From a virus, in the IMG/VR virus record IMGVR_UViG_3300047564_002485, positions 1-38,509 of that record: a stretch of DNA of 38,509 nucleotides; one strand, given 5' to 3'. A program made the translations under genes and the position numbers. Of this stretch, positions 4,479 to 29,323 are shown piece after piece. Every line of letters starts with the position of its first letter. The first letter of the stretch is position 1. The notes under the pieces are model-generated. The model saw nothing but the letters and a program-made list of their open reading frames with translations, searched no databases and was not told the origin of the DNA.

Positions 4479-4503
4479 AGTGTGCCGGTTTGGAAAGTGG
4501 TTC
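4479..4503 (-). repeat. 25-bp repeat, copy A
   Basis: This stretch, containing GTGCCGGTTTGGAAAGTGG on the plus strand, matches 7504-7528 at 24 of 25 positions. Both copies lie between the stop codon of a paralogous late gene and its terminator. The identity is far higher than between the two coding sequences, so the copies were either recently duplicated or are kept by selection. Confidence 0.9.
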
Positions 4504-5086
4504 AGGCTGGGTCTTCAGCAAATCTACGTCTTGACTCTCTTTCAGCAGGATTTAAATTTTTTCTTCTAGATGCTGCTTCTTCAGTTCCATAAGGTTTTCC
4601 AGTTAGTCTATCAACATGCCCTCTACTACGAGCATCAGCACGTTCTTCTCTTCCAGCAAGACTTCTTCTACGCTTTTTGAATGTTACTTTATTAAGTGGT
4701 TCTTCAACGTTTTCAGGTCTTACACCTTCCATAATCTCTTCTCTCCACTCTTCACTCATATTCACCATAATTTTTTCTGCTGCTTCTGGAGTTTCAGCAT
4801 ATCCTTCATCTAGAAGATGTGAGAGGATGATGTGGTAAATATCTACATCTTCTTTATTAAGTGCTGCTCTTCTTTTTGCTTTGCTTCCCGCACCTCTGTC
4901 CCTATCTTCACCCTCAACACTTGCCCAATAATCTTTATTTCTTCTATTTGGTTGTCCAGGAATACTGCGTTCTCCTTCTGGAGCACTTACCCCACCACGC
5001 TTTCTCACGGGAACCCGGTCTTCATCAAGTTCCTGATAAACTTCTAAATATGCTTCTTGTAGATTGCGAAGTTCCTGAGAGTTCAT
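4502..5086 (-). CDS. Paralogue A: charged late protein with DEGYA/NMSEEWR motif, 194 aa
   Basis: A hydrophilic protein rich in Arg, Glu and Ser. The N-terminal helix reads LQEAYLEVYQELDED (from residue 8). A conserved core around residues 95-125 contains LSHLLDEGYAETPEAAEKIM followed by NMSEEWREEI. The C-terminal third is a highly basic tail. The core is clearly shared with the protein at 7529-8101, and I recognise it from small unknown proteins of T4-like cyanophages. The LDE tripeptide fits the (L/I)-x-E site of a gp21-type prohead protease, so a virion internal protein is possible, but this is inference. It has its own late promoter and terminator. Confidence 0.8.
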   Translation of the reverse strand: MNSQELRNLQEAYLEVYQELDEDRVPVRKRGGVSAPEGERSIPGQPNRRNKDYWASVEGEDRDRGAGSKAKRRAALNKEDVDIYHIILSHLLDEGYAETPEAAEKIMVNMSEEWREEIMEGVRPENVEEPLNKVTFKKRRRSLAGREERADARSRGHVDRLTGKPYGTEEAASRRKNLNPAERESRRRFAEDPA

Positions 5087-7528: not shown

Positions 7529-8101
7529 TCAACCTCTAGTTTTCCCGCCGTGCTTTGCAGCAACTGAACGCATTTTATCTGCTCTATCATAATCTCTTTT
7601 TTGTTTGACAGAATCACCAGAGTCTCCCGCAGTTTCTCCAGAGTCCATAGCATCATAAACTTGTCTATCAACTCTCTTATGAGGAAACTCTTTCTTACCT
7701 TCAACAATACTCTGTCTCCACTCCTCACTCATATTCGCCATAATTACAAGTGCCGCTTCATTCGTATCAGCATATCCTTCATCTAAGAGATGCTCTAGAA
7801 TAGCATCAAAAGCATCATACTCCATTTCCATATTCAGTCTTGCACTAGCACCTTTATGAGGATCATCTGGTTGCCCTGGAGAGGTTTTTCTTGCAATTGC
7901 TTTTTGCGTTCTGCGTAATTTTTTTCTACCTTCTGCATCTTCTCCACCAGATGATTCAATTTCATCAACTTTTTTAAATCTTTTTTTACGAGCCGAACGT
8001 AAAGTATCAAGCGAAAGTTCATCAAGTTGCTCTACATCTTCAACTTGAGTATAAATTTGGTTATAGGCTTCCCAAAGACCTAAAATTTCTTTATCTGTCA
8101 T
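7529..8101 (-). CDS. Paralogue B: charged late protein with DEGYA/NMSEEWR motif, 190 aa
   Basis: A hydrophilic protein whose N-terminal helix reads WEAYNQIYTQVEDVEQLDEL. A shared core around residues 98-128 contains LEHLLDEGYADTNEAALVIM and NMSEEWRQSI, matching the protein at 4502-5086. The flanks are rich in Lys, Arg, Asp and Ser and poorly conserved between the two. The LDE tripeptide near residue 28 fits a gp21-type prohead protease site, so it could be a processed virion protein. This is inference. The gene is monocistronic, with a TATAAATA promoter, a 25-bp repeat and a terminator. Confidence 0.8.
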   Translation of the reverse strand: MTDKEILGLWEAYNQIYTQVEDVEQLDELSLDTLRSARKKRFKKVDEIESSGGEDAEGRKKLRRTQKAIARKTSPGQPDDPHKGASARLNMEMEYDAFDAILEHLLDEGYADTNEAALVIMANMSEEWRQSIVEGKKEFPHKRVDRQVYDAMDSGETAGDSGDSVKQKRDYDRADKMRSVAAKHGGKTRG

Positions 8102-14297: not shown

Positions 14298-14305
14298 TAT
14301 TTATT
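14298..14305 (-). promoter_or_regulatory. Possible late promoter AATAAATA ahead of uvsW
   Basis: One mismatch from TATAAATA, overlapping the stop codon of the 651-residue gene and 22 bases before the uvsW start. It is less certain than the perfect octamers because the region is AT-rich. Confidence 0.4.
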
Positions 14306-16256
14306 GCTGTTCTTCAGGTGCTCCCTCTGCTGGTTGCTTTTGTGGTTTTTTCTTTTGGTTCGGTTTAGACTGTTGTTGAGTTGGTTTTGGTTGAACTTCT
14401 GGTTTTGGTTGTTGAGTTGGTTCTGGTTTTTGAGTTGGTTCTGGTTGAACTTCTGGTTTTGGTTGTTGAGTTGGTTCTGGTTGAACTTCTGGTTTTGGTT
14501 GTTGAGTTGGTTCTGGTTTTTGAGTTTGTGTTGATACTTGTTGTTCTTCTCCTCCCTGTGCTTTTGCAGCTCCCTGACGAATAGTATCAAGAGTTGCAGT
14601 TGGAGGTGTACTTAAGTGTGTTTGATATGCCGCAACAGTATCATTTGCTGCTGCCTGTGTTGCTGCAAGATTATTTTGTGCTGCTTCCCTTTTTTGAACT
14701 ATTTTTTTGACAGAAGGATCTGATTGATTTCTATCTATAAATGATTGGAATCTAGGTAAATTTTGTAACAGTGGTCTGGTTCCATCAGAATACCTAAGTT
14801 TTGTTGGATCGTTTGCCTTATCAACTTCTGTCTGTGCAGTTTGCATATCTAATTGAGACTGTGCAACTTGCTGCTCCAACTCTGCCGCTGTTTGAGTATG
14901 TTGCGCTTCTGCCTCTGCCTGTGCTTGTTGTTCTTGCTGTTTAATTTCTCTAACTTTTTTTGCCCGAATGTCAAAAGTTTCAAAATCAACAAGATCTTTT
15001 AAATCAAATTCACCTTTAGATTGAAGGTTTCTTATTTCATCTTGAATCTCTGGTTCAAAATTAGCAATTTTTTTCTCCCATGCTGGTACTCCCCATTCTT
15101 CTCTCCATTTTTTCAGATATTCACTATCTGTTGGTTTGTCTTCAGCATCTTGATAATTTTTAATGTCCCCAGACATTGTAGTTGGTCTTTGAATTGCACC
15201 TTCTTTTGTTTTACTGGTTCCCTTGCCAAGTCTTCCTCTTTGAAAAACATATTGAGCCAACCATGATGGATCTTCAATAACTTCTCCACCCCTACCAGTA
15301 GAGAATAAAGCATCTACTGTACTAGCATCTCCATATTTACCTTTTCCAGTTATCGCCTCTCTAGACATGGCCTGAATGGTTCCTGGAATAACAGATTCTA
15401 TACTATTCAAATACTCTTGCATTTGAGGAAGAGCATCCTTTTGCTGCTCCTTACTCATCCCTCTTGTGCTAGACATATAGAGTGCAAGTTGATTGGCAAG
15501 TTCTTTACCCATTGCCTCCCTTTCTGCTCTTTGTTCTGGAGTAATTATTTTATCAACTTTTTCTTGCTGATCCAAAAGAGAATTCATTCCAAGAAGAATA
15601 TATGCTTTTGTTTCTTCTGCTCCAGAAGAATTAACTACAGCACCTTTAGCGTCTTTCAAACTTATTCCATATTTTTTCCCATTTTCATCTACAAATGAGA
15701 CATCAACTTTAGATGTATCCTGTTCTTTTCCGGTTATTTCTCTTGCTTTATCAGTTAATGCAATTTTAGTGGCTCCCTCACGTTCGGCAATATGTCCTCT
15801 AGATGCTTGTATTTTGCCACTTTCACTTTGAACAAAATTTAATAAAGAATATTGTTGATTTAATAATTTATTATAATATGCTTCTCTATGTGCTTCCTTA
15901 TCCTGAACCTCTCCAGATTTAGACCTTTTTCCTCCAGTAAAACCAGCATCGTTAGGATTAAGATTGTCAAAATACAGTGGAGAAGTTGGATCGGTTTGTG
16001 CTCTTTGTACTTCTTTTGCAATGAGATCTGTTATAGTAAACATATCGCCACGTTGTACCGCACCTCTGAACAACTTTCTCATATCTGCACCCTCAGAGTC
16101 ACTCTTATTAACCATGTGGTTATAGAGATTTACGAAAGATTGCTCATAGTCATAATCTGGACCACCCCTTTTAGATTTAACTTCTGCAATTAATTCTTGT
16201 GTTGATTTATATTCCTTAAAGTAGCAATCGAATATAAATTCCCTAAACTTCTTCAT
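14301..16256 (-). CDS. 651-aa protein with capsid-targeting-like N-terminus, nuclease-like region and Pro-rich repeat tail
   Basis: Not recognised as a T4 core gene. Residues 1-10 (MKKFREFIFD) resemble the T4 capsid targeting sequence, and LIAE follows at 22-25, matching an (L/I)-x-E prohead protease site. A region at 155-215 has E158/E160, then VDVSFVDENGKKYGISLKDAKG (184-205), where D185 and K201 resemble a PD-(D/E)xK nuclease core, though the usual acidic residue before K is Ser. Residues 430-480 are Gln/Glu-rich coiled coil. Residues 579-627 are tandem 12-residue Pro/Gln/Glu repeats ending in a basic, then acidic tail. It lies between uvsY and uvsW and has a perfect late promoter. Function unknown; the nuclease assignment is tentative. 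Confidence 0.75.
   Translation of the reverse strand: MKKFREFIFDCYFKEYKSTQELIAEVKSKRGGPDYDYEQSFVNLYNHMVNKSDSEGADMRKLFRGAVQRGDMFTITDLIAKEVQRAQTDPTSPLYFDNLNPNDAGFTGGKRSKSGEVQDKEAHREAYYNKLLNQQYSLLNFVQSESGKIQASRGHIAEREGATKIALTDKAREITGKEQDTSKVDVSFVDENGKKYGISLKDAKGAVVNSSGAEETKAYILLGMNSLLDQQEKVDKIITPEQRAEREAMGKELANQLALYMSSTRGMSKEQQKDALPQMQEYLNSIESVIPGTIQAMSREAITGKGKYGDASTVDALFSTGRGGEVIEDPSWLAQYVFQRGRLGKGTSKTKEGAIQRPTTMSGDIKNYQDAEDKPTDSEYLKKWREEWGVPAWEKKIANFEPEIQDEIRNLQSKGEFDLKDLVDFETFDIRAKKVREIKQQEQQAQAEAEAQHTQTAAELEQQVAQSQLDMQTAQTEVDKANDPTKLRYSDGTRPLLQNLPRFQSFIDRNQSDPSVKKIVQKREAAQNNLAATQAAANDTVAAYQTHLSTPPTATLDTIRQGAAKAQGGEEQQVSTQTQKPEPTQQPKPEVQPEPTQQPKPEVQPEPTQKPEPTQQPKPEVQPKPTQQQSKPNQKKKPQKQPAEGAPEEQQ
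14376..14519 (-). repeat. In-frame 36-bp tandem repeat coding PEPTQQPKPEVQ units
   Basis: About four imperfect copies of a 36-bp unit encode the Pro-rich tail of the 651-residue protein. Some units are shortened, as where PEPTQK interrupts the pattern. The near identity of the copies at the DNA level suggests recent expansion by slippage or unequal recombination. Confidence 0.9.
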
Positions 16257-16270
16257 CTTTATAGGCAGTT

Positions 16271-16278
16271 TATTTATA
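16271..16278 (-). promoter_or_regulatory. Late promoter TATAAATA ahead of the 651-aa gene
   Basis: A perfect octamer on the minus strand 14 bases before the start codon, in the 23-base gap after uvsY. Confidence 0.7.
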
Positions 16279-16279
16279 T

Positions 16280-16711
16280 TTAGTTAAACCCCGCCTGGAA
16301 GCGATGCCACTCTATGGCATTTTTGATTTGATATGTTCTATTGGAAATAGTTCTAATAATTTCTTCAAGAAATTTTAGCATCATATCATAGTATCTTATT
16401 TTAAGATCAAGTTTACTTAGTCTCTCATCACCTTCCATATGCCTCTGTAACGCTTCTTTATCACGAACTTTATATGGGAAAGGTTCTTCTTCATAAACCT
16501 CAATTGGTGCCTTTCCAGTGTAGTAATTGTATCGTTCTAGTCTTACCTTATTGTATGTTTCTCTTGCTTTTTCACGTAGAAGTGTGACTGTATTATAAAC
16601 AATATAATATTTTGCGTGTAGTTGAGGAATTTTTAAAGATTCATCATGTAAGTTATCAGGATCAATGACAGAATCTTTTTGCCACATTTCCTGAATTTGT
16701 TCAAGATTCAT
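16280..16711 (-). CDS. uvsY: Recombination mediator UvsY
   Basis: UvsY loads the UvsX recombinase on single-stranded DNA covered by the phage SSB. The 143-residue helical protein starts MNLEQIQEMWQKDSVID, like T4 UvsY MRLEDLQEELKKDVFID. It also keeps an RLERYNYYTGKAP segment equivalent to the T4 RLDYYSGRG region and a C-terminal helix ending FQAGF. The length agrees with T4 (137 aa). The start overlaps the gp3 stop by four bases (ATGA), so it is translationally coupled to a tail gene. Confidence 0.93.
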   Translation of the reverse strand: MNLEQIQEMWQKDSVIDPDNLHDESLKIPQLHAKYYIVYNTVTLLREKARETYNKVRLERYNYYTGKAPIEVYEEEPFPYKVRDKEALQRHMEGDERLSKLDLKIRYYDMMLKFLEEIIRTISNRTYQIKNAIEWHRFQAGFN

Positions 16712-29011: not shown

Positions 29012-29323
29012 TTATTCAGACCATGAGAGTCTTTCTGGTTGATATCTTTGTGCGTTTTTAACCTTGATAGAACTAGTTGAATTTGGATAAATGTTATGGA
29101 CAATTGCACCAGGATATTCATCTTGCAATTGTTCAGCAAGTTGATTTTTTGAAATCATTTTACCTTCCAATTCCATACGATATATCTTACCGTTCCAAAC
29201 TACGTCGGCAATAAAAGATTCTTTAGATAATTCAGGTTGTGAAGAACCATTCATATAAAGATTTCCGTTAAAATCTCCAGAAATATTAATACTTTCTGAA
29301 ATGAATTGATTGAAAGATTTCAT
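29012..29323 (-). CDS. Putative capsid-targeted internal protein, 103 aa
   Basis: The chosen ATG overlaps the upstream stop (TAATG) and has a strong GGAGGTG Shine-Dalgarno. The N-terminus MKSFNQFISES aligns residue by residue with the T4 capsid targeting sequence MKTYQEFIAEA of internal proteins: Lys2, an aromatic at position 4, Phe7, Ile8 and Glu10, with the gp21 cleavage point after Glu10. In T4 this 10-residue signal sends proteins into the prohead core. The mature part would be a 93-residue small soluble protein, including VVWNGKIYRMELEGKMI, of unknown function. It may therefore be packaged and injected, but this is inferred. Confidence 0.75.
   Translation of the reverse strand: MKSFNQFISESINISGDFNGNLYMNGSSQPELSKESFIADVVWNGKIYRMELEGKMISKNQLAEQLQDEYPGAIVHNIYPNSTSSIKVKNAQRYQPERLSWSE

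What the first reader, a model, noticed from the sequence alone, without database searches (positions are those of the whole stretch)
14301..16256. 651-residue late protein combining a capsid-targeting-like start, nuclease-like core and proline-rich tail
The protein interrupts the uvsY-uvsW region, has its own TATAAATA promoter, starts MKKFREFIFD and has a LIAE site at 22-25. Residues 155-215 look like a PD-(D/E)xK arrangement (Glu158/Glu160, Asp185, Ser-Leu-Lys 199-201). A packaged nuclease injected with the genome could degrade host DNA or act in conflict with other phages. The repeat tail could be a flexible tether. I know of no described protein with this combination.
Basis: inference. Interest (0 to 1): 0.72.

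Follow-up and report, generated by a model that had tools for sequence, protein, structure and literature searches.

The report
Putative nuclease cargo of cyanophage heads
A gene that moves between sites in viruses of cyanobacteria seems to encode a protein packed into the virus head and injected with the DNA, and its core resembles the active-site layout of DNA-cutting enzymes, so it may be a natural injected DNA cutter.

Summary
The 651-residue gene is real, sits between uvsY and uvsW of a T4-like cyanophage contig, and belongs to an undescribed family: 51 IMG/VR contigs plus one isolate, P-RSM6.

Packaging is well supported by sequence. Of 28 representatives, 25 begin M-[KR]-x-F-x-x-F and 3 carry the motif shifted; all 28 have an [IL]xE protease-like site before the folded part. 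This mirrors T4 internal head proteins. The window protein has Asp at position 10, a change reported in T4 to block cleavage but not targeting, and a second site, LIAE, at 22-25. No virion data exist for the family.

The nuclease reading is partly supported. Asp185, Ser199 and Lys201 are invariant in 24 sequences reaching 17% identity, with an acid 13-14 residues after the lysine in 28 of 28: a D...SxK...E layout as in CCGG-type restriction enzymes. Models show helix-strand-strand-strand-helix order. But fold searches found no nuclease, profile hits are sub-threshold, and Glu158/Glu160 are not conserved.

The gene hops between hotspots, as expected of accessory cargo. Best explanation: an injected internal head protein with a restriction-enzyme-like nuclease core. 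Activity and target are untested.

The parts
14301..16256 (-). the gene, 651 codons plus stop, between uvsY and uvsW
   Evidence: relatives
16271..16283 (-). late-promoter-like CTAAATA (16283-16277) overlapping TATAAATA (16278-16271)
   Evidence: [ACT]TAAATA upstream in 26 of 28 relatives
16227..16256 (-). capsid-targeting-like N-terminus, residues 1-10 (MKKFREFIFD; F4, F7, D10)
   Evidence: T4 counterparts; roles of positions 4, 7, 8, 10 from passages of PMC9026906
16182..16193 (-). LIAE, residues 22-25, putative prohead-protease site (cut after Glu25)
   Evidence: [IL]xE before the folded part in 28 of 28
15993..16148 (-). helical N-domain, residues 37-88
   Evidence: AlphaFold model
15555..15899 (-). 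nuclease-like core, residues 120-234 (helix, three strands, helix)
   Evidence: models; alignments A5/A6
15702..15704 (-). Asp185, invariant
15654..15662 (-). Ser199-Leu200-Lys201; Ser and Lys invariant
15612..15614 (-). Glu215, acid 14 residues after Lys201; an acid at +13 or +14 in 28 of 28
15348..15539 (-). C-terminal helices of the conserved part, residues 240-303
14304..14537 (-). P/Q-rich repeat tail, residues 574-651

Best explanation
It is an accessory late internal head protein of a T4-like cyanophage. Its first ~10 residues dock it into the prohead core; the prohead protease cuts after Glu25 (not after residue 10, which is Asp here) and frees the mature protein among the packaged DNA; it is ejected into the next cell with the genome. 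Its core (about 120-234) is a PD-(D/E)xK-like nuclease of the rearranged kind, in which Ser replaces the acid of (D/E)xK and Glu215 of the following helix takes its metal-binding role. It cuts DNA in the entered cell, of the host or of a rival phage, and is held inactive in the head. Shown: the gene, the conserved start and protease-like site, the invariant D, S and K with an acid at K+13/14, and several relocations between cargo hotspots. Inferred: packaging, cleavage, ejection, fold, cutting and target.
For: Start and [IL]xE site in 28 of 28, shuffles 9.8 on average and at most 18; F4 and F7 in 25 of 28; same layout in T4 IPI, IPII, IPIII; same start on the S-SM1 cytidylyltransferase, which PMC3037559 reports in the virion. 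D185, S199, K201 invariant in 24 sequences; acid at K+13/14 in 28 of 28, matching the KX12-13E of CCGG-family enzymes (PMC4652773). Helix-strand-strand-strand-helix order in two models. In six frames of the window's record the only RE_TdeIII profile match is this core, below threshold. Accessory and relocating gene. T4 heads tolerate packaged EcoRI or staphylococcal nuclease (passages of PMC9026906).
Against: No nuclease among fold-search or PDB profile matches. RE_TdeIII hits are below the family cut-off, in 1 of 24 and 1 of 20 members, among chance-level hits, and absent from P-RSM6. In one branch the +14 residue is Gln and the acid is Asp at +13. D-to-K spacing (x15) is shorter than the X21-53 given for the CCGG family. 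No virion data for any member.
Confidence: 0.42

Rival explanations
1. An injected anti-defence protein like T4 Ip1-Ip3: packaged and cleaved the same way, but the core binds and blocks a host restriction or defence enzyme, perhaps as an inactive nuclease mimic.
For: T4 Ip1, Ip2 and Ip3 each inhibit a distinct GmrSD enzyme (passages of PMC12373910); same N-terminal layout; no fold match to active nucleases; a packaged nuclease is a danger to the phage's own DNA.
Against: Invariant Asp, Ser and Lys and a constant acid look like a maintained active site, whereas inhibitors of changing targets should vary at such places.
Confidence: 0.25
2. A head-assembly or DNA-organising internal protein without enzymatic role: the start targets it to the core and the basic, P/Q-rich parts interact with DNA or scaffold.
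For: Weak match to phrog_1383, virion structural protein (E 0.006); long low-complexity tail; helical rest of the protein.
Against: Accessory and relocating; absent from near relatives such as S-SRM01 at this site; invariant polar residues in the core.
Confidence: 0.18
3. A freestanding homing-type endonuclease whose relocation is its own doing, with a chance resemblance of its start to capsid-targeting sequences.
For: At least 5 changes of location forced by well-supported branches for the uvsY-uvsW label; tRNA-Ala upstream in 10 of 17 sources scanned; a GIY-YIG-like ORF directly upstream in L075 (named by eye).
Against: Targeting-like start and protease-like site in 28 of 28 and late-promoter-like element in 26 of 28 relatives are not expected of a homing endonuclease; one copy per record in 13 of 13.
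Confidence: 0.07

Closest known systems
T4 internal head proteins IPI, IPII, IPIII (capsid-targeting sequence)
   Same: N-terminal M-K-x-[FY]-x-x-F start, [IL]xE site before the mature part, late accessory gene that differs between related phages; IPI also has its site well after residue 10, at 17-19
   Different: Much larger; core with D...SxK...E layout; no sequence similarity in the mature part noted; no virion or injection data
CCGG-family Type II restriction enzymes (NgoMIV, Cfr10I, Bse634I, BsaWI)
   Same: Asp, Lys and an acid 12-13 residues further on in place of the acid of (D/E)xK; BsaWI uses Asp (passage of PMC4652773)
   Different: No detectable sequence or fold-search similarity; D-to-K spacing x15 against X21-53; R-(D/E)R recognition motif not looked for
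Type II restriction endonuclease TdeIII (PF09520)
   Same: Sub-threshold profile match over residues 169-232, the core
   Different: 11.9-14.2 bits against a cut-off of 27.2; 1 of 24 members; not in P-RSM6
Engineered T4 heads with CTS-fused EcoRI or staphylococcal nuclease
   Same: A nuclease carried in an infectious head by a capsid-targeting start (passages of PMC9026906, PMC3012670)
   Different: Man-made; here the combination would be natural
Polyvalent proteins of phages (PMC5512222, start of abstract seen)
   Same: Large phage proteins thought to enter with the DNA and act in conflicts
   Different: No recognised domain found here by Pfam; enters by a T4-type head route if at all

Membership tests
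T4-type CTS internal head proteins | N-terminal ~10-residue targeting start with aromatic 4 and Phe 7 | tested here: met
   25 of 28 exactly, 3 of 28 shifted; window has F4 and F7
T4-type CTS internal head proteins | prohead-protease site ending in Glu between start and mature part | tested here: met
   [IL]xE in 28 of 28 by sequence; actual cleavage not testable
T4-type CTS internal head proteins | present in virions and injected | not testable with these tools
   no proteomics of any member; only the S-SM1 cytidylyltransferase with a like start is reported in virions
T4-type CTS internal head proteins | accessory late gene | tested here: met
   absent at this site in S-SRM01, S-SKS1, P-SSM2; late-promoter-like element in 26 of 28 relatives
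PD-(D/E)xK nucleases | core order helix, three strands, helix with Asp on the second strand and Lys on the third | tested here: inconclusive
   order seen in two models of moderate confidence, the SxK just after the third strand; no fold-search match
PD-(D/E)xK nucleases | Asp and Lys of the active site conserved | tested here: met
   D185 and K201 invariant in 24 sequences
PD-(D/E)xK nucleases | acid two residues before the Lys (canonical form) | tested here: not met
   Ser199 in all; so it is not filed as a canonical member
PD-(D/E)xK nucleases, CCGG-type variant | acid 12-13 residues beyond the Lys (KX12-13E) | tested here: met
   acid at K+13 or K+14 in 28 of 28; variant from PMC4652773
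PD-(D/E)xK nucleases | DNA cutting with divalent metal | not testable with these tools
   needs an assay
RE_TdeIII (PF09520) | profile score over the curated cut-off | tested here: not met
   11.9 to 14.2 bits against 27.2
homing endonucleases | a known homing-endonuclease domain | tested here: inconclusive
   none found by Pfam, PHROGs or NCBIfam, but relocation is seen

The most novel reading that the evidence does not exclude
A mobile family of natural, virion-packaged restriction-enzyme-like nucleases: T4-like cyanophages load a dormant D...SxK...E nuclease into their heads with a capsid-targeting peptide and inject it with the genome, where it destroys host or rival phage DNA. It would be nature's version of the engineered T4 heads that carry EcoRI or staphylococcal nuclease.
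Probability: 0.35. Interest if true: 0.82.

Novelty: new variant of a known kind. Interest (0 to 1): 0.62.

Why it matters
T4 Ip1-Ip3, the internal proteins of this type with assigned roles, are inhibitors of restriction enzymes. A packaged protein that itself carries a restriction-enzyme-like active site would turn the same delivery route into a weapon, would raise the question how the phage's own DNA is spared in the head, and would give cyanophages a defined class of injected effectors. It also extends the capsid-targeting code (residues 4 and 7, protease site) from enterobacterial phages to cyanophages, so that other cargo genes can be read off from sequence. P-RSM6, a cultured phage, makes it directly testable.

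Tried and rejected
Fold searches with both models (PDB by Foldseek; BFVD; VIA-align): the one good match was BFVD entry M4SQ08 (E 2e-11, 392 aa), which I take from its length to be the P-RSM6 relative. No nuclease family appeared; this is not evidence against one. Profile searches of the PDB with A6 and A8 gave HSP70 tails, armadillo repeats and other helical proteins. PADLOC and NCBIfam scans of A6 gave scattered hits that I judged to be chance; the best, an S1-domain family at E 0.00018 in 2 of 24 members, was not followed up. The Pfam PARP hit on the tail is low complexity. The neighbouring phrog_1462 gene, which also has a D...SLK pattern, was tested as a relative: hhalign probability 1.8%, rejected. 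Cellular relatives: a genome-contig scan with A1 confirmed none of 145 matched stretches; a scan with A6 could not be run, as no stretch was conserved enough. E158/E160 as catalytic acids: rejected on conservation.

Rows dropped: of 51 distinct IMG/VR contigs, 27 (with the window, 28 rows) served as representatives; 24 near-copies or truncated contigs were left out (L006, L009-L011, L013, L019-L024, L027, L042-L048, L050, L052, L070, L072, L076). A6 (24 rows) leaves out L016, L032, L068 and L073 of the 28; A3 holds 13 rows and A8 20. In one search the 28 are the 27 loci plus P-RSM6, without the window. In the tree 3 of 28 rows had no location label.

Full report
What is there. The ORF is exactly as described. 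The window is a 38,509-base virus record of a T4-like cyanophage, nearest among phage records to S-SRM01, S-SKS1 and P-SSM2. In S-SRM01 uvsY and uvsW are 32 bp apart; in S-SKS1 one and in P-SSM2 three small ORFs lie between, and in S-SM1 an oxygenase gene, so this is a site of variable cargo. The finding's gene fits between them with 23 and 24 bp.

Relatives. tblastn against 50,697 phage records found one phage, P-RSM6 (two accessions), 25.6% identity over residues 35-214; its gene is annotated hypothetical. Five scans of IMG/VR gave 51 distinct contigs, my count over their tables. A scan of bacterial and archaeal genomes confirmed none. No Pfam, PHROG or NCBIfam family covers it convincingly.

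The N-terminus. In 28 representatives (window plus 27 of 51 contigs), 25 have K/R2, F4 and F7; L007, L012 and L018 carry a similar motif three residues later. All 28 have at least one [IL]xE before the folded part; shuffling each N-terminus gives 9.8 of 28 on average and at most 18 in 2000 shuffles, though the sequences are related, so this is no probability. T4 IPII and IPIII start MKTYQEFIAEA; IPI starts MKTFKEF and has ITE at 17-19, leaving 76 residues, the length given for mature IPI in a passage of PMC3012670. Passages of PMC9026906 report that residues 4 and 7 carry targeting, 8 and 10 processing, and that Asp at 10 blocks processing but still allows targeting. Position 10 is Glu in 19 of 28, Asp in the window alone, neither in 8; the window has LIAE at 22-25. 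Passages of PMC5694885 say that the T4 protease cuts after Glu, with ITE and LTE as sites in Alt. The window's own gp23 has FLSE at 51-54 and T4 gp23 FLTE at 62-65. One cyanophage virion protein has this start: the S-SM1 cytidylyltransferase begins MKKFSAFLNEA. It was the only ORF of 60 aa or more in the four S-SM1 pieces with MKxFxxF, in a scan of ATG starts that also allowed internal ones, and passages of PMC3037559 list it (T4-GC190) among proteins found in purified S-SM1 virions (gene and GC number). This links the start to the virion in cyanophages by one case; the family itself has no virion data.

Expression. 26 of 28 relatives have [ACT]TAAATA within 70 nt upstream, shuffled mean 2.2; the two without are P-RSM6 and its near-copy L025. 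The window has CTAAATA at -27 overlapping TATAAATA at -22. TATAAATA is in none of the 28 relatives. T4 late promoters with A for T at one position of the TATA box are listed in a passage of PMC2988020. Late expression is therefore likely but inferred.

The core. AlphaFold on residues 1-420 with 13 sequences (pLDDT 65.8, pTM 0.57) and on 106-300 with 24 sequences (pLDDT 76.0, pTM 0.62) both give helix, strand, strand, strand, helix across 120-234, with Asp185 on the second strand and Ser199-Lys201 just after the third. In the 24-sequence alignment, down to 17% identity, the invariant residues are Tyr127, Gly161, Gly176, Asp185, Ser199, Lys201 and Ser210. Leu200 varies (L, M, G); Glu158 and Glu160 vary; the stretch between Asp and Ser varies in length. 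An acid stands 13 or 14 residues after the lysine in 28 of 28: Glu at +14 in 19, Glu at +13 without one at +14 in 2, Asp at +13 in 7. A passage of PMC4652773 gives PDX21-53KX12-13E for CCGG-family restriction enzymes and an Asp variant in BsaWI; ours is D-x15-K-x13-E.

Results against. Foldseek and VIA-align found no nuclease for either model; the VIA-align rows cover mainly the C-terminal helices. Profile searches of the PDB found none. RE_TdeIII matches the window's core below threshold (E 0.041 and 0.033; 1 of 24 and 1 of 20 members) among other hits of like strength. Searching the whole record in six frames with that family, its only match is this core (E 0.002, 11.9 bits), and P-RSM6 has none. 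I take the nuclease reading as the best of several, not as shown.

Movement. Marker genes were mapped on the loci. Counting each of the 51 contigs once: 25 lie at uvsY/uvsW, 18 in the gp41-mazG-cytidylyltransferase region (one, L053, by its cytidylyltransferase alone), 3 downstream of ribonucleotide reductase, 4 had no marker, and 1 (L024, a fragment) gave no core match; the window adds one to the first group and P-RSM6 one to the second. On a tree of 28 rows (25 labelled) the three locations need 6 changes, and well-supported branches alone force at least 5 for uvsY-uvsW. Four of the five sub-branches occur at two places; the window's own sub-branch (6 rows) only at uvsY-uvsW. Records searched whole hold one copy each (13 of 13). 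A tRNA-Ala gene lies upstream in 10 of 17 sources scanned. This is the pattern of exchangeable cargo.

How it may work. Packaged nucleases are tolerated when idle: T4 heads have carried EcoRI and staphylococcal nuclease fusions, the latter cutting the DNA after calcium was added (passages of PMC9026906 and PMC3012670). A natural nuclease would need such a restraint, by metal, site, DNA modification or its own other domains; which one is unknown. The main rival is an injected inhibitor, as T4 Ip1, Ip2 and Ip3 are (passages of PMC12373910).

Novelty. Searches for P-RSM6 (6 papers, listing only), for capsid targeting with nuclease and internal protein, for capsid targeting sequence with phage, for cyanophage with virion proteome or internal head protein, for injected proteins and nucleases in T4-like phages, for polyvalent proteins and for packaged endonucleases in competition showed, in their listings and in the passages read, no description of this family. 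Most subscription papers are not in the library.

Noticed in passing
window 29012-29323 (-): A 103-residue protein starting MKSFNQFISESINISG, another capsid-targeting-like start.
   Followed up: no
L007:3475-4902, L013:7389-8927, L054:5665-7080: phrog_1462 genes next to the family in the gp41-mazG hotspot have their own WNPxDxW...SLKK pattern, possibly a second nuclease-like family; no profile similarity to the finding's core.
   Followed up: partly
L007:5141-6442, L013:9160-10452, L001:2585-3682: Cytidylyltransferase-like proteins with capsid-targeting-like starts (MKSFFHFLKEV, MKNFFQFLSEA, MITFHVFITEA) in the same hotspot; the S-SM1 one is reported in virions.
   Followed up: partly
L001:1406-2584: DUF6267 protein with a TKWDGAPA stretch that by eye recalls a ligase lysine motif; PHROG 455 joins such a part to a cytidylyltransferase.
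   Followed up: no
L075:5347-5889: A GIY-YIG-like ORF (by eye) lies between uvsY and the family gene.
   Followed up: no
window 4502-5086 and 7529-8101 (-): Two ORFs that share NMSEEWR stretches and look like paralogues.
   Followed up: no
L068, L069, L071, L073, upstream of the gene: A GGGGAG...CTGCAG...CTCCCCTTTTT terminator-like hairpin lies between ATAAATA and the start codon in this branch.
   Followed up: no
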